From NCBI RefSeq assembly GCF_900230285.1, contig NZ_OCNK01000006.1, forward strand, positions 124,001 through 188,000: a stretch of DNA of 64,000 bases. The letters run 5' to 3'. Every line of letters starts with the position of its first letter. Positions within the stretch are counted from its first letter, which is position 1. Below, piece by piece: positions 21,904-43,728 of this stretch. Below the pieces are notes generated by a model. It saw only the letters and a program-made list of their open reading frames with translations. It was not told the origin of the DNA and ran no database searches. Source of the DNA: Blastococcus haudaquaticus. GTDB lineage: Bacteria > Actinomycetota > Actinomycetes > Mycobacteriales > Geodermatophilaceae. Position numbers and translations under genes: made by a program.

Positions 21904-21964
21904 CAGGCCCCCTGCAGGGTCCCGGCACGAGCGTGCGAGTGTCGGGGGGGCAGGGGGTCCTTTT
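21904..21964 (-). terminator. structured repeat element, copy E
   Basis: Read on the minus strand, the element begins right after the stop codon at 21965. Outer stem CCCCCTGC/GCAGGGGG; inner stem CCCGaCAC/GTGcCGGG with an A-C mismatch; 10-nt loop TCGCACGCTC; right-hand bulge ACCCT. It is the only minus-strand member of a family of five in the window, and it follows a minus-strand gene. It probably acts as a terminator or 3' end element. Confidence 0.65.
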
Positions 21965-22564
21965 TCAGGCGTCGAAGCCTGCGCGGTCGACCTTGCGGTG
22001 GTACTTGTCGCCCATCTTGCCGCCCAGGATCGCCCCGAGCAGCGTGACGAGCAGGATGGCCACGAGCGCGATGATGCCGCCGGTGGTCGCGGTGCCCTCG
22101 TCGATCGGGATGCGCGGCAGGTTCAGCTGCTGGAGCACGTTGTACTCCGAGCCGAAGACCAGCCCCAGCACCGCGAGCGCGATGACGACGATCAGGCCGA
22201 TGACCCAGACGGCGATGCCCTGGCGGACACCGTCGAAGCGGGCCATGCGACCGGCGACGTAGCCGCCGGCCAGGTAGGCCAGGAACAGGATCACCAGCAG
22301 GACGATGCCGCCGACGATGCCGATCGTGCTGGCCTCCTCGGCTGCCGCGTCGGTGGACGGCACGCCCTGGGTCAGGCCGATCGCCACCCCGCCCGCGCTG
22401 AGCAGCGCGACCAGCAGCACGGCCAGCCCGTTGGCGGACAGCCAGCCGAAGAAGGCCGCGCCCCACTTGATCCCGCCGTAGCGGGAGCGCTGCGCGTCGA
22501 CGGCGTCGCGTGCGGCGCCCTTCGTGGAGTGCGCGCCTTCCCCGGAGTACGCGGGCTCTGCCAT
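21965..22564 (-). CDS. hypothetical four-segment membrane protein
   Basis: A 199-residue protein with four strongly hydrophobic segments (ANGLAVLLVALLSAGGVAIGL, IGIVGGIVLLVILFLAYLAGGYVAG, VWVIGLIVVIALAVLGLVFG, GGIIALVAILLVTLLGAILGG) and a polar N-terminus. The alternation of Gly-rich helices resembles YrzE-like stress membrane proteins, but the function is unknown. Its ATG overlaps the stop of the PRC-barrel gene (TGATG), so it is translated from the same stress-type transcript. Confidence 0.75.
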   Translation of the reverse strand: MAEPAYSGEGAHSTKGAARDAVDAQRSRYGGIKWGAAFFGWLSANGLAVLLVALLSAGGVAIGLTQGVPSTDAAAEEASTIGIVGGIVLLVILFLAYLAGGYVAGRMARFDGVRQGIAVWVIGLIVVIALAVLGLVFGSEYNVLQQLNLPRIPIDEGTATTGGIIALVAILLVTLLGAILGGKMGDKYHRKVDRAGFDA

Positions 22565-23334
22565 CACGAGCGGCGGACGTCGGCGTCGGCGTCGAGCTCG
22601 ATCTGCTCCTTGCGGACCGTGTCGGTCACCGTCTGCTGCTCGGTGACCGTCTCGGTGTCGAGCCGGACCCGCTCGACCGGCACGGCCTCCTTGGCGACGA
22701 CGGGCCGCTCGGCGTGCAGGACGACCTCGTGCTCCTCCTCGGAGATGGCCGGGCCGTCGAGGGCGTTGCCGACGTTGGCGTCGGTGATCGGCTCGCGCTC
22801 GAGGACGACCTCCTCGTGGGAGACCGGCACGGTCTGGGTGACGTTCTCCGTGACGACGTACTTGCGCAGGCGGGCGCGACCGGCCTCGACCCGCTGGGTG
22901 CCGACGGTGAGGTGCTCCTCGGAGCGGGTCATGGCGTCGTCGGTCGTCGGACCGGACGTGTCGTGGCCGACGGTGCCGTGGGTGTTCGCGCTACCGGTGG
23001 TGTCGGCGACCGGCGCAGCGGCCTGGTTGCCCACGCCGTAGTAGCGGTAGAGCTCCGTCTCCTCGTCGGGGGAGAGGTGGCCGTCCGTGCCGATGTGCGG
23101 GGCGTTCTTGACCTTGTCCTTGTCGTAGGGGATGCGGAGGTCCTCGCCGGACAGGTCCGCGTCGGCCAGCGGGACGAAGGCCTCCTTCGTGCCGAACATG
23201 CCGGTGCGGACGGTGGCCCACTCCGGACGGCCGGTCTCGTCGTCGAGGTACACCTCGCCGACGGTGCCGATCTTGCCGTCGGTTCCGACGGCGTTGCTGC
23301 CGATGACTGCGGACAGGTTCTGCTCGGTGATCAC
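22564..23334 (-). CDS. PRC-barrel and DUF2382 domain protein
   Basis: A 256-residue protein. The N-terminal PRC-barrel spans about residues 1-95 (AVIGSNAVGTDGKIGTVGEVYLDDETGRPEWATV). The C-terminal DUF2382 domain starts at SEEHLTVGTQRVEAGRARLRKYV and contains the repeated R-V-x-L-E-R-E-P type strands. Such proteins are common in radiation- and desiccation-tolerant actinobacteria and are thought to be stress proteins. The GTG at 23334 is fixed by GAGGAG six nt before it. A SigB/SigF-like promoter lies about 80 bp upstream. Confidence 0.85.
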   Translation of the reverse strand: MITEQNLSAVIGSNAVGTDGKIGTVGEVYLDDETGRPEWATVRTGMFGTKEAFVPLADADLSGEDLRIPYDKDKVKNAPHIGTDGHLSPDEETELYRYYGVGNQAAAPVADTTGSANTHGTVGHDTSGPTTDDAMTRSEEHLTVGTQRVEAGRARLRKYVVTENVTQTVPVSHEEVVLEREPITDANVGNALDGPAISEEEHEVVLHAERPVVAKEAVPVERVRLDTETVTEQQTVTDTVRKEQIELDADADVRRS

Positions 23335-32267: not shown

Positions 32268-33056
32268 TCAGCTGCGGGGCAGACCCAGGTCCCGCAGCGC
32301 CGCGACGACCGCGTCCTCGTGCAGCAGGTCCAGCACCAGGAGCCGGTGCACGAGCACGCCGCGGCGGGTGAGCCGCAGGTCCGCGGTCCGGAGCCTCGGC
32401 AGCGTGGCGCCCGGACGTGCGGCGCCCACCGGCGGGGCCAGCAGGCCGGCAACCTGCAGGTCGGTGACGTCCTCCCGGGCGCCCCAGGCCGTCCAGGCGC
32501 GCGGCTCGTCCTCCAGCGGAGCCATCGGCAGCGGCACCCGCTCCCGGCGGCCGACCGCCGCCAGGATCGCGAGCTGTCGCCAGCTCGAGACCTCCGCCAG
32601 CCGCAGCGCCCGGCCGGCCAGGTCCAGGTCGACGTCGGGGGAGACTGCCACCTCGGCGAGCAGGTAGCCCAGGTGCCGGACCCGCCGCTCCTCGGTGGAC
32701 CTGCGGGCGGCGGCGAGGACCGCCTCCGCCAGTTCGTGGGCAGCGGGGCGGTTGCCGGGCCGCTCGTCGAACCAACCGTCGGTGCGGGCCGGCCGCCCGT
32801 TGCGGTGCAGCGTCGCCGCGTACTCCACGGCGAAGGCCAGGACGGCGCCGGCGCGGACCCGCTCGCGAGGGATCCGCAGGCCGGCGGCCTCGTCGGCGGC
32901 CGCGGACAGGCAGGCCGCGAACCGGTGGTCCACCTTCACCATGGCCGCCGCCGGGTCGAACACCACGGTGGCGGCGGCGCGGCTCATGGATCCGGCGACG
33001 GGGGTGCCGGCCTCGATGAGGTCGCGGCCCGTCGACGTCTGCTCGGATGCGGTCAC
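32268..33056 (-). CDS. hypothetical protein
   Basis: A 262-residue, soluble, largely helical and Ala/Arg-rich protein that I do not recognise. The middle region has repeated amphipathic helices (ELAEAVLAAARRSTEERRVRHLGYLLAEVAV), and the C-terminus (RLRTADLRLTRRGVLVHRLLVLDLLHED) looks like a winged-helix or other small domain. The GTG at 33056 (VTASEQTSTGRD) was chosen as start. It is divergent from the nitrate transporter gene with 146 bp between them. Confidence 0.65.
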   Translation of the reverse strand: MTASEQTSTGRDLIEAGTPVAGSMSRAAATVVFDPAAAMVKVDHRFAACLSAAADEAAGLRIPRERVRAGAVLAFAVEYAATLHRNGRPARTDGWFDERPGNRPAAHELAEAVLAAARRSTEERRVRHLGYLLAEVAVSPDVDLDLAGRALRLAEVSSWRQLAILAAVGRRERVPLPMAPLEDEPRAWTAWGAREDVTDLQVAGLLAPPVGAARPGATLPRLRTADLRLTRRGVLVHRLLVLDLLHEDAVVAALRDLGLPRS

Positions 33057-33202
33057 CGGGTGATCTTCGTCCGTCCGGGCGGCCACCTGCACGCCGGGAA
33101 CCGGGTCCCTCACCACACCGGGGCACCTGCGGTGAGCAGAACGGAACACGAGTTCAGCGTGCGAGCGACGCCGGCGAAACCGTCCGTTGCGACCGTCCTC
33201 GC

Positions 33203-34609
33203 ATGGCCGCACCCACCCGCCCCGACCAGACGATGCCGACCGACACCACGGTCGCCGCGCCACCAGCGCCGCCGTCGGGGCGCAGGGGCAAGTGGATCGA
33301 CGACTGGCGCCCCGAGGAGCCGGAGTTCTGGGAATCGACCGGCAAGCCGGTCGCGCGCCGGAACCTGTTCTTCTCGATCTTCTCCGAGCACATCGGCTTC
33401 TCGATCTGGAGCCTGTGGTCGGTGCTGGTGCTGTTCCTGCCCGAGGCGGTCTTCGGCATCGACCCGGCCGGGAAGTTCCTGCTCACCACGCTGCCCACGG
33501 CGCTCGGGGCCTTCGTGCGGCTGCCCTACACGTTCGCCGTCGCGAAGTTCGGCGGCCGGAACTGGACGATCATCAGCGCCGCGTTGCTGCTGATCCCGAC
33601 GATCGCCACCGCCGTCGTGCTGGAGCCGGGGGTGTCCTTCACGACGCTGCTCGTCGTCTCGTGCCTCGCCGGCGTCGGGGGCGGCAACTTCGCCAGCTCG
33701 ATGGCCAACATCAACGCGTTCTACCCCGACCGGCTGAAGGGCTGGGCGCTCGGCCTCAACGCCGGCGGGGGCAACCTCGGCGTCCCCGTCGTGCAGCTCG
33801 TGGGCCTGCTGGTGCTGGCCACCGTGGGCGTGGATCACCCACGGGTGATCCTCTTCGCCTACATCCCGCTGATCGTGGTCGCCGCCGTCGGTGCGGCGCT
33901 GGTCATGGACAACCTGACGACGGCGCGCAACCAGCCCCGCGCCATGCGGGAGGCGACCCGCGAGTCGCACACCTGGATCATGTCCTTCCTCTACATCGGG
34001 ACCTTCGGCTCGTTCATCGGCTTCGGCTTCGCCTTCGGGCAGGTGCTGCAGAACCAGTTTGCCGAGTCGTTCGCCACGCCCCTGGCCGCCGCGTCGCTCA
34101 CCTGGCTGGGGCCGCTGCTGGGCTCGCTGATCCGGCCGATCGGCGGCTCGCTGGCCGACCGGTTCGGCGGCGCGCGGATCACCTGCTGGAACTTCGTCGC
34201 GATGGCGCTGGGCGCCGGGGTCGTCTGGACGGCGAGCCAGCTGGAGTCCCTGCCACTGTTCGTCGTCGGCTTCGTCCTGCTGTTCGTACTCAGCGGCATC
34301 GGGAACGGCTCGACCTACAAGATGATCCCGGCGATCTTCCGGTCGCAGGCGCTGCAGGCGGTGGCCGCCGGTGGCGACCCGGTCGCCGCGGACCGCAGGG
34401 CGCTGCGGATGTCCGGGGCGCTGATCGGCATCGCGGGCGCCGTCGGAGCGTTCGGCGGGGTGCTGGTCAACCTGGCCTTCCGGCAGTCCTTCATGACCAC
34501 CGGCACCGGCGACTCCGCCTACCTCGTGTTCATCGCCTTCTACGTCGTCTGCGTCGTCGTCACCTGGGTCGTCTACCTCCGGCCGCGGGCGCTGCACGGC
34601 GCCGTCTGA
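33203..34609 (+). CDS. narK: NarK/NasA-type nitrate/nitrite MFS transporter
   Basis: A 468-residue major facilitator with about 12 membrane segments. The nitrate signature motifs are present: CLAGVGGGNFASSMANINAFYP in the first half and LFVLSGIGNGSTYKMIPAIF in the second, with the conserved Arg in the first helix pair. A polar N-terminus of about 50 residues precedes the first helix. It imports nitrate and/or exports nitrite for the reductase encoded 4 kb upstream. It is followed immediately by a structured repeat element. Confidence 0.93.
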   Translation: MAAPTRPDQTMPTDTTVAAPPAPPSGRRGKWIDDWRPEEPEFWESTGKPVARRNLFFSIFSEHIGFSIWSLWSVLVLFLPEAVFGIDPAGKFLLTTLPTALGAFVRLPYTFAVAKFGGRNWTIISAALLLIPTIATAVVLEPGVSFTTLLVVSCLAGVGGGNFASSMANINAFYPDRLKGWALGLNAGGGNLGVPVVQLVGLLVLATVGVDHPRVILFAYIPLIVVAAVGAALVMDNLTTARNQPRAMREATRESHTWIMSFLYIGTFGSFIGFGFAFGQVLQNQFAESFATPLAAASLTWLGPLLGSLIRPIGGSLADRFGGARITCWNFVAMALGAGVVWTASQLESLPLFVVGFVLLFVLSGIGNGSTYKMIPAIFRSQALQAVAAGGDPVAADRRALRMSGALIGIAGAVGAFGGVLVNLAFRQSFMTTGTGDSAYLVFIAFYVVCVVVTWVVYLRPRALHGAV

Positions 34610-34610
34610 G

Positions 34611-34665
34611 AGGACCCCGTCCTCCTCACCGCTCGCACGCTCGCGGCGAGCCTCTGGACGGGGCC
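34611..34665 (+). terminator. structured repeat element, copy A
   Basis: This element starts two bases after the narK stop codon. Outer stem CCCCGTCC (34615-34622) with GGACGGGG (34656-34663); inner stem CTCaCCGC with GCGGcGAG carrying an A-C mismatch; 10-nt loop TCGCACGCTC (34633-34642); right-hand bulge CCTCT. The shape is shared with four other elements in the window. Confidence 0.7.
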
Positions 34666-39365: not shown

Positions 39366-40393
39366 GCCGGCACCGGACCGCCGCTGCTGACGACGAGCCC
39401 CCGGCTGGCGAGCAGCCGCAGGTGGGCGTCGGTCTCCGTGACCGCGAAGATCCGCATCCGCCGCTCGTACTGCTCCCAGGGGCGCGACCAGGTCAGGTGG
39501 GCGGCCAGGTCCCACGGGGTGGAGCCGGGATGGGCGCGGATGGCGCCGAGCAGCTCGGCCAGCCGCTGCTCGTGGTGCGCGGTCAGCGCGTCCACCCGGG
39601 CGTCCAGGCCGCGGAAGCGCCACTCGTGCGCGGGCAGCACCTCGGCGGGGTCGAGGTCACGGACGGCGGCCAGGGAGTCCAGGTAGTCCCGGAGCGGATC
39701 GGGCAGACCGCCAGGGCTCGTCGAGATGTTGGGGCTGATCCGCGGCAGGACGTGGTCGCCGGAGAAGAACAGCCGGCTCCGCTCCTCGGCGAAGCAGAGG
39801 TGACCGGGGGTGTGTCCCGGTGTGTGGACGGCCCGCATGCGCCACCCCGGGAAGTCGGCGTGCTCCCCGTCCTCCAGGAGGCGGTCGGCCACGGCCATCT
39901 GCGTGAAGGCCCTCAGGTTCTCGGGCGGACCGACGTCGGAGACGGCCTCGTCGCGGCCCGCACCCAGCCCGACCAGGAACTCCACCTCCGCGGTGACCAT
40001 GGCCTGCGCACCGGCCGCGGTCAGGCGTGCGACGGCTGCCGCGTCCGCCGGGTGCATGGCGATCCAGGCGCCCGAGGCGTCCCGGACGCGCGCCGCGAGA
40101 CCGAGGTGGTCGAAGTGCAGGTGGGTCACCAGCACGCCGCGCACCTCCTCGACGCCGGCCCCGATCGCGGCGAGGCCGGCGGTGAGCGCGGCCCAGCTCT
40201 CGTCGCTTCCCCAGCCGGCGTCGAGCAGTCCCAGCCCGCCGCCGTCGAGCGCGAAGGCGTGCACGCTGACGTAGCGCAGCGGATTGTGGGGGATCGGCAC
40301 CGGGATCGACCACAGGTCGGGGCGCAGCCGCTCGACCGGCGGCAGCGCCTTCTGCTGCCATGCGTCGTGCTGGGCGGTGCCGGTGATCTCCAC
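39344..40393 (-). CDS. MBL-fold metallo-hydrolase
   Basis: A 349-residue metallo-beta-lactamase-fold enzyme. The metal-binding motif is HLHFDH (residues 91-96), with the later His and Asp ligands in AVHTPGHTPGHLCF and LFFSGDHVLP. A C-terminal winged-helix-like tail (LGAIRAHPGSTPWDLAAHL) is typical of the group with a BLACT_WH domain. The substrate is unknown, perhaps a thioester or lactone. Confidence 0.87.
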   Translation of the reverse strand: MEITGTAQHDAWQQKALPPVERLRPDLWSIPVPIPHNPLRYVSVHAFALDGGGLGLLDAGWGSDESWAALTAGLAAIGAGVEEVRGVLVTHLHFDHLGLAARVRDASGAWIAMHPADAAAVARLTAAGAQAMVTAEVEFLVGLGAGRDEAVSDVGPPENLRAFTQMAVADRLLEDGEHADFPGWRMRAVHTPGHTPGHLCFAEERSRLFFSGDHVLPRISPNISTSPGGLPDPLRDYLDSLAAVRDLDPAEVLPAHEWRFRGLDARVDALTAHHEQRLAELLGAIRAHPGSTPWDLAAHLTWSRPWEQYERRMRIFAVTETDAHLRLLASRGLVVSSGGPVPAWTLALR

Positions 40394-40457
40394 GGCCTCG
40401 CACTCTGCCAGTCACGCTGCCGGTCACTCGGCGGCGAGGTGCTGGGACCATGGTGGC

Positions 40458-40955
40458 GTGACGGGAACTCCACCGGGCGGCGACCACGTGACGGTGTCGG
40501 CCGTACCCCGCCGGATGCGGCTGCTCCTCGCTCTGCTGGGAGCGGTCGTGGTCGCCGTGATGGTCGTCGTGGCCCTCGGGCTGAAGGACACGACGAACAC
40601 CGTCGTCAGCTACCGGACGTCGGACCAGGTCGCCCTCGCCGGCATCGGCATCGTGCTCGCCGCCGGGGTCATGTTCCTCGGCCGCTCCCGGGTCGACGCC
40701 GACGCCGCCGGCGTGCGGGTGCGGAACGTCGTCGTCCACCACGAGCTGCCCTGGCAGGCGGTGCGGGCCGTGCGCTTCGATCCGAAGTCGCCGTGGGCCT
40801 CGCTGCTGCTGGAGAACGGCGACGAGGTGTCGCTCCTGGCCCTGCAGGCGGTCGACGGCGAGCACGCGGTGCGGGCGGTCGAGGGCCTGCGGGCGCTCCA
40901 TGCCTCGGCACGGGCGAGCGACCCGGTGCGCCCGCCGCTCCTCTACGACGACTGA
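40458..40955 (+). CDS. PH-domain membrane protein
   Basis: A 165-residue protein with two membrane segments (LLLALLGAVVVAVMVVVALGL and VALAGIGIVLAAGVMFLG) followed by a bacterial PH-like domain (VDADAAGVRVRNVVVHHELPWQAVRAVRFDPKSPWASLLLENGDEVSLLA). Function is unknown in this common actinobacterial family. The GTG at 40458 is chosen. A structured repeat element follows its stop codon, isolating it from the infC leader. Confidence 0.8.
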   Translation: MTGTPPGGDHVTVSAVPRRMRLLLALLGAVVVAVMVVVALGLKDTTNTVVSYRTSDQVALAGIGIVLAAGVMFLGRSRVDADAAGVRVRNVVVHHELPWQAVRAVRFDPKSPWASLLLENGDEVSLLALQAVDGEHAVRAVEGLRALHASARASDPVRPPLLYDD

Positions 40956-40958
40956 TGA

Positions 40959-41012
40959 AGGACCCCTCCTCCCGCACCTCGCAGGCTCGGCGAGGGTCCC
41001 TGAGGGGTGGCC
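40959..41012 (+). terminator. structured repeat element, copy B
   Basis: Starts 4 bases after the stop codon. Outer stem ACCCCTC (40962-40968) with GAGGGGT (41002-41008); inner stem CCCgCACC with GGCGaGGG; 10-nt loop TCGCAGGCTC (40979-40988); right bulge TCCCT. The same architecture is seen in copies A, C, D and E. Confidence 0.68.
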
Positions 41013-42658: not shown

Positions 42659-42660
42659 CG

Positions 42661-42717
42661 AGGAGCCACCCTGCCCCACGCCTCGCGAACTCGGCGCGGG
42701 ACCCTGCAGGGTGGCCG
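42661..42717 (+). terminator. structured repeat element, copy C
   Basis: Starts 3 bases after the rplT stop codon. Outer stem GCCACCCTGC (42665-42674) with GCAGGGTGGC (42706-42715); inner stem CCCaCGCC with GGCGcGGG with the A-C mismatch; loop TCGCGAACTC (42683-42692); right bulge ACCCT. It probably ends or trims the ribosomal-protein transcript. Confidence 0.7.
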
Positions 42718-42803
42718 TTCCAGCACGTCACCTGACGCCGTCGGTGTCCGTCCTCCGGGGCGGGCACCGGCGGCGTCGCCGTCTGCCCGGCGTCACCCCC
42801 GGG

Positions 42804-42861
42804 CGAGATCGGCGATCTCGCCGCCATCGGGACGCTGAACGGGACGAGATCGCCGATCTCG
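42804..42861 (+). repeat. long inverted repeat of the CGAGATC family upstream of tsnR
   Basis: A perfect 17-bp inverted repeat: CGAGATCGGCGATCTCG (42804-42820) and CGAGATCGCCGATCTCG (42845-42861), with a 24-nt spacer. Each arm is itself a 7-bp hairpin. It ends about 6 nt before the SD of tsnR. The outline, including the spacer (CGCCGCCATC, CGCTGA, CGAG, CGCCGC), is shared with the repeat before pheS. Confidence 0.8.
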
Positions 42862-42883
42862 CCGCACGGAGGAAGGGAGTCCC

Positions 42884-43672
42884 GTGGCCGAGCTGCTCAC
42901 CGAGCGCTCCGCGCGCATCGTGGCGGCGCGCAAGCTGACCCGGCGGGCCGGCCGCGACGCCGCCGGCCTCTTCCTCGCCGAGGGGCGGCAGGCCGTCGTG
43001 GAGGCGCTGGCCGAACCGGACGGCCTCCGGGAGGTCTACGCCACCGAGTCCGCGGCCGCCGCGCACCGCGACCTGCTGGCGGGCACCCGCGTGCCGGTCC
43101 GGCTCCTCACCGACAAGGCCGCTGCCGACCTGTCGGAGACGGTGACCCCTCAGGGTCTCCTGGCCGTCTGCGAGCTCCGGGACGTCGACCCCGCGGCGCT
43201 GGTCGCGGAGCCACCCCGGCTGTCCGTCGCCCTGGCGGAGCTGGCCGATCCGGGCAACGCGGGCACGGTCTTGCGGACGGCGGACGCGTGCGGCGCCGGC
43301 ACGGTGGTCTTCGGCGCGGGATCGGCCGACCCGTACGGGGGCAAGGCGGTCCGGGCCAGCGCGGGAAGCCTCTTCCACGTCGACGTCGTCCGCGGAGCGC
43401 GGCTGGACGAGCTGCTTCCGGCGCTCCGGGCGGCCGGTGTCACGGTGCTCGCCGCGGACGGCGGGGGAGAGGCGGCCCTCGACGAGCTGGGTGACCGGCT
43501 CGCCGGTCCGGTGCTGTGGCTGTTCGGGAACGAGGCCAGAGGGGTGCCCGCGGAGCTCGGGGCCCTGGCCGACGCGCGGGTGCGCATCCCCATGCGTGGG
43601 CGGGCCGAGAGCCTCAACCTCGCCGCCGCCGCGGCGATCTGCCTCTACGCGACCCAGCTGCAGCAACGTTGA
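42884..43672 (+). CDS. tsnR: TrmH/SpoU family RNA 2'-O-methyltransferase (TsnR-like)
   Basis: A 262-residue SPOUT methyltransferase. The three SpoU motifs are ELADPGNAGTVLRTADACGAG, VLWLFGNEARGVP and RIPMRGRAESLNLAAAAAICLY. It probably 2'-O-methylates 23S rRNA using S-adenosylmethionine. In actinobacteria it sits between rplT and pheS, as here apart from an intervening block. The name tsnR is taken from that position; thiostrepton resistance itself is not shown. The start is GTG 42884 with a GGAGGAAGGGAG-like leader. Confidence 0.85.
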   Translation: MAELLTERSARIVAARKLTRRAGRDAAGLFLAEGRQAVVEALAEPDGLREVYATESAAAAHRDLLAGTRVPVRLLTDKAAADLSETVTPQGLLAVCELRDVDPAALVAEPPRLSVALAELADPGNAGTVLRTADACGAGTVVFGAGSADPYGGKAVRASAGSLFHVDVVRGARLDELLPALRAAGVTVLAADGGGEAALDELGDRLAGPVLWLFGNEARGVPAELGALADARVRIPMRGRAESLNLAAAAAICLYATQLQQR

Positions 43673-43673
43673 G

Positions 43674-43728
43674 GTCGGCCCCTGCCCTCCACCACTCACA
43701 GGCTCGTGGCGGGCCCCTGCAGCGGTGC
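43674..43728 (+). terminator. structured repeat element, copy D
   Basis: Follows the tsnR stop and abuts the convergent diiron oxygenase stop. Inner stem CCaCCAC (43689-43695) with GTGGcGG (43706-43712) and the A-C mismatch; loop TCACAGGCTC (43696-43705). The outer stem is degenerate (CTGC/GCAG plus isolated pairs); right bulge CCCCT. It is the weakest member of the family. Confidence 0.55.

What the first reader, a model, noticed from the sequence alone, without database searches (positions are those of the whole stretch)
34611..34665. A five-member family of structured elements directly after stop codons, with compensatory stem changes
Seen directly: elements at 34611 (A), 40959 (B), 42661 (C), 43674 (D) on plus and 21904-21964 (E) on minus, each starting 0-3 bases after a stop codon and always on that gene's strand. 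Each has an outer stem, a 5-nt right bulge ending CT (CCTCT, TCCCT, ACCCT, CCCCT, ACCCT), an inner stem interrupted by one mismatch (usually A-C), and a 10-nt loop: TCGCACGCTC in A and E, TCGCAGGCTC in B, TCGCGAACTC in C, TCACAGGCTC in D. Stem bases differ between copies but remain paired: CTCaCCGC/GCGGcGAG in A, CCCaCGCC/GGCGcGGG in C, CCaCCAC/GTGGcGG in D, CCCGaCAC/GTGcCGGG in E. That is covariation, meaning the RNA fold is selected. None has a U-tract. Inference: a lineage-specific terminator or mRNA 3' end element, or a protein-binding RNA.
Basis: partly seen in the sequence, partly recalled or inferred. Interest (0 to 1): 0.75.

Follow-up and report, generated by a model that had tools for sequence, protein, structure and literature searches.

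The report
Repeated hairpins parked at stop codons
A desert and rock-dwelling family of bacteria carries many copies per genome of one small folded repeat, mostly parked right behind a gene's stop codon, and the strand that folds best is the one opposite to the gene's message, so it looks more like a spreading DNA hairpin than a message-ending signal.

Summary
The five elements are real. A covariance model built from them gives 149 matches in the host genome at E<=1 (150 candidates scored), and matches in 31 of 37 genomes of its family and 0 of 24 others of the order; named hits make the family Geodermatophilaceae. 103 of 145 copies start within 12 nt after a same-strand gene-like stop. Covariation is strong. 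First, the strand complementary to the gene folds better in 236 of 241 copies (mean about 5.8 kcal/mol), and the conserved 'A-C mismatch' is a wobble pair there: 243 of 249 paired versus 49 of 249 on the gene strand. Second, copies come and go between species at orthologous stops, three sit inside other copies by eye, and one congener shows none. This fits a REP-like, non-autonomous dispersed hairpin better than an mRNA 3'-end signal. No Y1 (RAYT-type) transposase was found in the host or 36 relatives, so the mover, if any, is unknown. A terminator for antisense or convergent transcription is the main rival.

The parts
34610..34665 (+). Element A, after the stop of an MFS-family gene (33047-34609); type without tail
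   Evidence: not seen in the 150 nt after the stop in 13 of 13 relatives with a close ortholog (by eye); 98% identical sister copy elsewhere in the genome
40956..41029 (+). Element B, after the stop of a bacterial-PH-domain gene (40284-40955); core 40959-41011 plus a diverged tail
42659..42731 (+). Element C, after the stop of rplT (named by recall from its sequence and gene order, no call); core 42665-42715 plus tail CGTTCCAGCACGTCACC
43673..43728 (+). Element D, after the stop of a SpoU-type methylase gene (42884-43672)
21906..21964 (-). Element E, after the stop of a minus-strand gene of 200 aa (21965-22567) with no Pfam match at E 0.001
21904..21968 (+). Example of the better-folding complement strand (of E): hairpin followed by GGTCCTTTTTCAG; -38.7 kcal/mol against -30.7 for the gene strand

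Best explanation
The five are members of a REP-like family of dispersed, non-autonomous palindromic repeats (core about 53-54 nt; about 72-77 nt where the tail ..GTTCCAGCACGTCAC is kept), at high copy only in Geodermatophilaceae as far as searched. Shown: copy number, position at stops, covariation, better fold on the strand complementary to the gene, presence/absence between species. By eye: nested copies. Inferred: each copy spreads as a single-stranded DNA hairpin formed by the complement (template) strand, read through its conserved tip (on that strand GA-G-CNYG-C-GA: two G/A mismatches able to form a tandem sheared pair, one G-C pair, a four-base cap), its wobble pair and its one-sided bulge; new copies land at or just after the T of a stop codon, where they do least harm, and re-form a stop there. 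Once in place they stay as inert or mildly useful 3'-border hairpins until lost or replaced. What moves them is unknown; a Y1 HUH (RAYT/IS200) enzyme is not found.
For: Copy number jumps between close relatives: with the same settings (E<=0.001, 95 candidates scored each) host 94, G011 93, G012 74, G013 22, G015 0; with 150 scored G011 139, G012 76, G003 39. Of 50 relatives' elements placed on held host DNA, 20 found no host element (I accept 18), 29 a same-strand one, 1 an opposite-strand one. Shared cores split into 12 of 29 at 0.91-0.98 identity and, after a gap, 17 at 0.64-0.84, so many shared stops carry a different subfamily. Site A is empty in 13 of 13 close orthologs and has a 98% sister in the genome. 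One copy inside another's hairpin, by eye: hits 32, 37, 84. In three filled/empty pairs the filled site has T|AG where the empty one has T|GA (L371, L303, L383); 7 of 8 copies at the closest spacing read T|AAGG. Complement folds better in 140 of 145 and 96 of 96 and in 48 of 49 copies with a Watson-Crick pair at the variable place. Loop on the complement: G1 246, A2 240, G3-C 240, G 245, A 237 of 247. Known REPs show the same habits: near 3' ends, convergent and unidirectional spacers, termini that supply stop codons (PMC3733652, section 15).
Against: No mover: Y1_Tnp 0 in the host and 0 of 36 relatives at E 0.01; RVT_1 in 14 of 30 and IS110 in 19 of 30 without relation to copy number, IS110 not in the host; no gene recurs widely between close pairs of elements; no long repeat flanked by elements in the held host DNA. 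No target-site duplication was seen by eye. No two distinct host copies in the 150-row alignment are identical (the one identical pair is a place read from two overlapping stretches), so no recent burst. The stop predicts position far better than any DNA motif around it (C before TGA 74% versus 60% in controls). Close orthologous copies sometimes keep pairing by double changes (9, against 23 single changes that make or break a pair, in 19 comparisons with a crude scheme), so some upkeep after insertion is possible. The strand difference in pairing lies mainly in one inner pair and the two end pairs, the latter partly a register effect; energies are RNA rules; copies share ancestry.
Confidence: 0.55

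Rival explanations
1. Intrinsic terminator or roadblock for transcription on the opposite strand. Read on the complement the element is a strong hairpin followed by CCTTYNNTCA; it would end convergent or antisense transcripts exactly at the gene's 3' border.
For: Better fold on the complement in 236 of 241 copies; mean 3.23 T in the 8 nt after the hairpin on that strand versus 1.29 in 9 nt on the gene strand, element E with TTTTT; convergent gene within 200 nt behind 39 of 103 element-bearing stops versus 170 of 662 control stops within 260 nt.
Against: 64 of 103 stop-adjacent copies have no gene-like convergent stop within 150 nt. Only 10 of 145 have 5 T in the 8 nt, and part of the T comes from TCA, the complement of the stop. 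A terminator does not need a fixed 10-nt loop, and one congener shows no copy. The tool's terminator scan found none of the five, but its loop limit of 3-8 nt means it could not have.
Confidence: 0.22
2. mRNA 3'-end element of the upstream gene (U-less terminator, 3' protection, or ribosome stalling as reported for E. coli REPs within 15 nt of a stop).
For: 103 of 145 copies within 12 nt after a same-strand stop; strong covariation; some pair-keeping double changes in orthologous copies; [quoted passage not shown] U-less hairpins near stops are described as common, e.g. in M. tuberculosis (passages of PMC8355165). A fixed A-C could be a recognition mark on the message.
Against: The gene's message carries the worse-folding strand. 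At rplT a separate downstream hairpin is the conserved feature. Presence is patchy between species.
Confidence: 0.13
3. Binding site for an RNA- or DNA-binding protein (regulon, nucleoid or repair function), spread by recombination among copies rather than by a transposase.
For: Nearly fixed loop and wobble pair with free stem letters; same stop with a different subfamily in relatives.
Against: No candidate protein; a same-genus genome shows none; empty orthologous sites are common.
Confidence: 0.07
4. Chance or plain GC-rich hairpins.
For: High GC (74%) makes hairpins easy.
Against: 149 model matches, 0 of 500 shuffles as high, near-confinement to one family.
Confidence: 0.01

Closest known systems
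REPs / REPINs with RAYT (GTAG-tagged repetitive extragenic palindromes)
   Same: Small imperfect palindromes, over 100 copies, extragenic, next to 3' ends, often in convergent or unidirectional spacers, ends that can supply the stop codon, subfamilies (PMC3733652 abstract, passages and section 15; PMC3116915 and PMC8049555 passages)
   Different: No GTAG foot, larger (core about 53-54 nt with two helices and a 5-nt one-sided bulge), long fixed 10-nt tip, no Y1 transposase in the genomes searched; the word Actinobacteria does not occur in PMC3733652, though it mentions untagged REP-like repeats of M. tuberculosis
CGTC-tagged REPs
   Same: No dedicated transposase known (PMC3733652); the optional tail here ends ..CACGTCAC
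   Different: CGTC here lies in a tail present in about 35 of 145 copies by a loose text test, not at the foot of the hairpin; stems, loop length and listed host phyla differ
IS200/IS605-type ssDNA hairpins (recalled)
   Same: Strand-specific imperfect hairpin as the moved or recognised form
   Different: No Y1 enzyme; no element-bounded transposon seen
Hairpin terminators after stop codons, incl. U-less ones (PMC8355165 passages) and Neisseria uptake-sequence terminators (recalled)
   Same: Hairpin directly behind the stop
   Different: Loop and one A-C place fixed, arms free; better fold on the wrong strand for the upstream gene

Membership tests
REP/REPIN moved by RAYT | High-copy extragenic imperfect palindrome | tested here: met
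   149 matches in 4.5 Mb; 103 of 145 directly behind gene ends
REP/REPIN moved by RAYT | GTAG (or GGAG) tetranucleotide at the hairpin foot | tested here: not met
   5' foot is mostly NRAAGGACC; TAG occurs mainly where it is, or may be, the stop
REP/REPIN moved by RAYT | Y1 HUH transposase (RAYT) in the genome, flanked by the repeat | tested here: not met
   PF01797: 0 in host, 0 of 36 relatives at E 0.01, several of them incomplete; control genomes rang in 6 of 14
REP/REPIN moved by RAYT | Inverted doublets (REPIN) | tested here: inconclusive
   Overlapping inverted pair at C2:881983/882033; doublets were not counted systematically
CGTC REP | CGTC/TGTC/CCTC at the foot of an 8-9 bp stem with a 4-5 nt loop | tested here: not met
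   Foot and loop lengths differ
Intrinsic terminator of the upstream gene | Stable hairpin then U-tract on the gene strand | tested here: not met
   mean 1.29 T in 9 nt over 145 copies
Intrinsic terminator of the opposite strand | Stable hairpin then U-tract on the complement | tested here: inconclusive
   mean 3.23 T in 8 nt, 10 of 145 with 5
Intrinsic terminator (either strand) | RNA 3' ends at the site | not testable with these tools
   no transcriptome data
Rfam families | Score at or above a gathering cut-off | tested here: not met
   0 matches in the window
Integron attC sites | RYYYAAC/GTTRRRY boxes and an IntI | not tested
   considered from memory only

The most novel reading that the evidence does not exclude
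A new kind of mobile hairpin: an element not driven by a Y1 HUH enzyme, whose active form is the folded template strand and whose landing site is defined by the stop codon itself, perhaps through replication or transcription at gene ends, and which doubles as a barrier to antisense transcription across a bacterial family.
Probability: 0.25. Interest if true: 0.85.

Novelty: new variant of a known kind. Interest (0 to 1): 0.62.

Why it matters
It adds a large, well-structured REP-like family in Geodermatophilaceae. Searches of the open library aimed at that family and such repeats showed no description of it in their listings; one search had 172 papers of which I saw 10 titles, so this is no proof of absence. 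REP-like repeats are on record for other actinobacteria (M. tuberculosis in PMC3733652; counts for three Actinomycetota in PMC12306157). The finding comes with a clean handle, which strand folds, that separates 'message-end signal' from 'mobile or antisense-facing hairpin' and makes both testable. A congener without model matches is a natural control, and the lack of a Y1 enzyme reopens how REP-like repeats without a dedicated transposase spread.

Tried and rejected
RAYT/IS200 link: no Y1_Tnp in host or 36 relatives. Reverse transcriptase and IS110 profiles: sporadic, unrelated to copy number. Search for an autonomous parent: no long repeat bounded by elements in 0.80 Mb of held host DNA; 51 close element pairs gave two two-member protein clusters, one a locus held twice, the other a pair of about 390 aa in L256 and L271 that I did not follow up. 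A GA left behind at the 3' side: GA follows GGCC in 17 of 77 stop-adjacent and 7 of 33 other tail-less copies against 6.4% background, alike in both, so it looks like part of the element. Strong DNA target motif around the stop: only a weak C preference. A-C versus G-U decay test: 62 against 20 outside the end pairs and the fixed A-C place, but mixed by position and copies share ancestry, so I lean on energies and on the fixed pair. Promoter/terminator scans found nothing at the five sites; the terminator rule cannot see a 10-nt loop, so that is no evidence. The host count is a lower bound: 150 candidates were scored, and one search found a few more in the held stretches.

Dropped or not seen: 4 of 149 host matches whose stretches I did not fetch (its printout was cut, so hits 73-78 were seen by the script only). 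One search used 17 of the 20 matches and its printout was cut. One search used 96 of the 99 matches, themselves a sample of 254 matches in three genomes; 46 of the 96 could not be placed on held host DNA; of 20 'empty' calls I do not count L305 (flanks 70-76% alike) and L361 (the host stretch shows an element's start). Held host DNA lies around host elements, so filled sites are over-represented. Of the 29 shared cases L308 lies at another point of the same spacer, L323 is nested in the host, and two host elements are met twice. One host copy is counted twice in A3 (overlapping stretches).

Full report
Observation. I made a hand-padded alignment of the five, built a covariance model R1 and searched the window: the five seeds, plus one weak match (E 0.34). 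Rfam gives nothing in the window at its cut-offs.

Scale. In the host genome (4.51 Mb, 11 contigs) R1 has 149 matches at E <= 1 among 150 candidates scored, 144 of them at E <= 0.001, so the number is a lower bound. Of the 61 genomes, 31 of 37 in the same family match and 0 of 24 in other families of the order; congener G015 (100% complete) has none, as do five other family members, some of them incomplete. Of 298 genomes of the order 53 match at 1e-4: 50 in the family and 3 in two other families with 1-2 matches each (stricter filters, 19 candidates scored per genome). Matching coordinates show that AZ43 is the unnamed congener G006 and Blastococcus mobilis DSM 44272 is congener G009, so the host belongs to the genus that holds B. 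mobilis.

Anatomy. 145 of the 149 copies were read. Gene strand, 5' to 3': stop codon, a few nt, RAAGG, outer stem about 10 bp, 0-3 nt, inner stem 8 bp with one A-C, loop TCGCANGCTC, inner stem, a 5-nt bulge usually ending CT, outer stem, GGCC, and in about 35 of 145 a tail like GTTCCAGCACGTCAC. 103 of 145 cores start within 12 nt after a gene-like stop on the same strand. The distance depends on the stop: TGA mostly with NN before AAGG (43 copies), TAG most often with NNN (11 of the 12 at that distance), TAA mostly as T|AAGG. Of the 42 others 21 have an opposite-strand stop within 150 nt on the far side.

Covariation. On 150 aligned host matches 84.9% of pair cells are paired against 69.0% in shuffles, covariation score 0.344 against 0.103, 0 of 500 shuffles as high, slid controls 0.020-0.044; 17 of 18 pairs have double changes. 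The alignment was fitted to the structure and copies are related, so the number is not a probability; but the effect is large.

Which strand. The pair called a mismatch is A-C in 118 of 150 host rows and never G-U. A-C on one strand is G-U or G-T on the other. Over 249 rows from four genomes the complement pairs in 243 of 249 at this place, the gene strand in 49 of 249; over all 4438 cells 97.0% against 86.1%. This difference sits in that pair and in the two end pairs (95.6% against 49.6%, partly a one-base register shift between two types); over the remaining 3693 cells it is 97.1% against 95.5%. RNA folding gives the complement the lower energy in 140 of 145 host copies (mean difference 5.76 kcal/mol) and in 96 of 96 from G003, G011 and G012; 400 random 57-mers show none (mean -0.25, sd 4.94). 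As a control, in the 49 rows whose variable pair is Watson-Crick the complement is still better in 48, by 5.20 kcal/mol on average, against 7.35 in the 194 A-C rows, so loop and bulge contribute too. On the complement the loop is G A G C N Y G C G A with G1 246, A2 240, third-position pair G-C 240 (plus 3 G-T), G 245 and A 237 of 247: a tandem G/A step, a G-C pair and a four-base cap; reading it as sheared G-A pairs is recalled structural knowledge. So the better and more complete fold is that of the strand opposite to the message of the gene it follows.

Turnover. Around the spoU anchor I compared 20 relatives, largely by eye. Site A: 0 of 13 close orthologs. Site B: one same-place element (G033), one rearranged pair (G009) and a possible remnant (G012) among 19. 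Site C: recognisable in G003 (decaying), G007 and G008, a core-less remnant in G011 and a short hairpin of unclear descent in G026, of 20; the next hairpin downstream is clear in 18 of 20 (not G017; altered in G024) whether or not the element is there. Site D: one weak match (G001, E 0.0014) of 20. At infC-rpmI eight relatives have an intact or decayed copy, mostly where the usual spacer is missing, while G009 has both. Of 96 copies of three congeners 50 could be placed on held host DNA: 29 with an element on the same strand, 1 on the opposite strand, 20 empty of which I accept 18. The 29 shared cores fall into 12 at 0.91-0.98 identity and 17 at 0.64-0.84. In the closer ones double changes that keep pairing occur (GTCC/GGAC versus CTTC/GAAG at C6:808292, a compensated base-pair insertion at C2:1234812), but so do changes that break pairs: in 19 comparisons 9 double changes keep a pair, 23 single changes make or break one, by a crude pair scheme. 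Three host copies lie inside the hairpin of another copy by eye (hits 32, 37, 84). Median nearest-neighbour identity among 144 host cores is 0.92; copy A has a 0.98 sister, copy D only 0.83.

Mechanism. Copy-number jumps, empty sites, stops that carry different subfamilies in different species, opposite-strand use of one spacer and nesting speak for a dispersing repeat. Its habits match those reported for REPs (PMC3733652: abstract, passages and section 15 seen): close to 3' ends, convergent and unidirectional spacers, termini that supply stop codons. The strand asymmetry of an imperfect hairpin is what single-strand transposition uses (recalled for IS200/IS605; the IS608 parallel is in passages of PMC3116915). 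I therefore think it most likely a non-autonomous REP-like element recognised as a complement-strand hairpin. The weak point is the mover: no Y1_Tnp in the host or 36 relatives, no link to RVT_1 or IS110, no recurrent flanked gene. The second weak point is the tie to the stop codon, stronger than any motif around it.

Rivals. Read on the complement the element is a strong hairpin followed by CCTTYNNTCA, which suits a terminator of convergent or antisense transcription; convergent spacers are enriched (39 of 103 versus 170 of 662) but are a minority. A role in the sense mRNA is possible, since REPs within 15 nt of a stop are reported to stall ribosomes (PMC12306157 abstract and passages, citing Liang 2015, which I have not read), but then the message carries the poorer fold.

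Membership. It meets the general definition of a REP-like repeat and fails the GTAG tag and RAYT tests; it also fails the CGTC foot. PMC3733652 itself mentions untagged REP-like families in M. tuberculosis and D. radiodurans. I file it as a new variant of a known kind.

Noticed in passing
window 42802-42863: A second palindromic repeat with 19-nt perfect arms (GGCGAGATCGGCGATCTCG) between rplT and spoU; in G002, G006 and G011 similar-looking hairpins with other arms lie in the same spacer, so another dispersed palindrome family seems to share this habitat.
   Followed up: partly
L164, L165, L168, L169, L170 (behind spoU): A different hairpin directly behind the spoU stop in G010, G016, G027 and G029 (arms like GGAGTG..CACTCC); in G015, which lacks the finding's family, CGCTTTCGGTACCGAAAGCG follows that stop instead.
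   Followed up: no
L171, L172, L173, L162, L156, L165, L163 (infC-rpmI spacer): The usual infC-rpmI spacer, with its own hairpins, is mostly missing where a copy of the element sits, but G009 keeps both; possible replacement of a ribosomal-protein leader.
   Followed up: partly
G089, G098, G180: One or two good matches each in genomes of two other families of the order: transfer, contamination or distant members.
   Followed up: no
L210 / G332 / G006: The record named Bacillus sp. AZ43 (marked unverified) has the same match coordinates as a congener of the window's genome, so it is a misnamed Geodermatophilaceae genome.
   Followed up: yes
G000:C4:110828-110857 (L091): A core-less copy: outer stem kept, inner hairpin gone, next to fragments of another copy; same kind of remnant as at rplT in G011.
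   Followed up: no
L256:5126-6304 and L271:5593-6756: Similar proteins of about 390 aa lie between two close elements in two named loci; orthologous neighbourhood or something that travels with the element.
   Followed up: no
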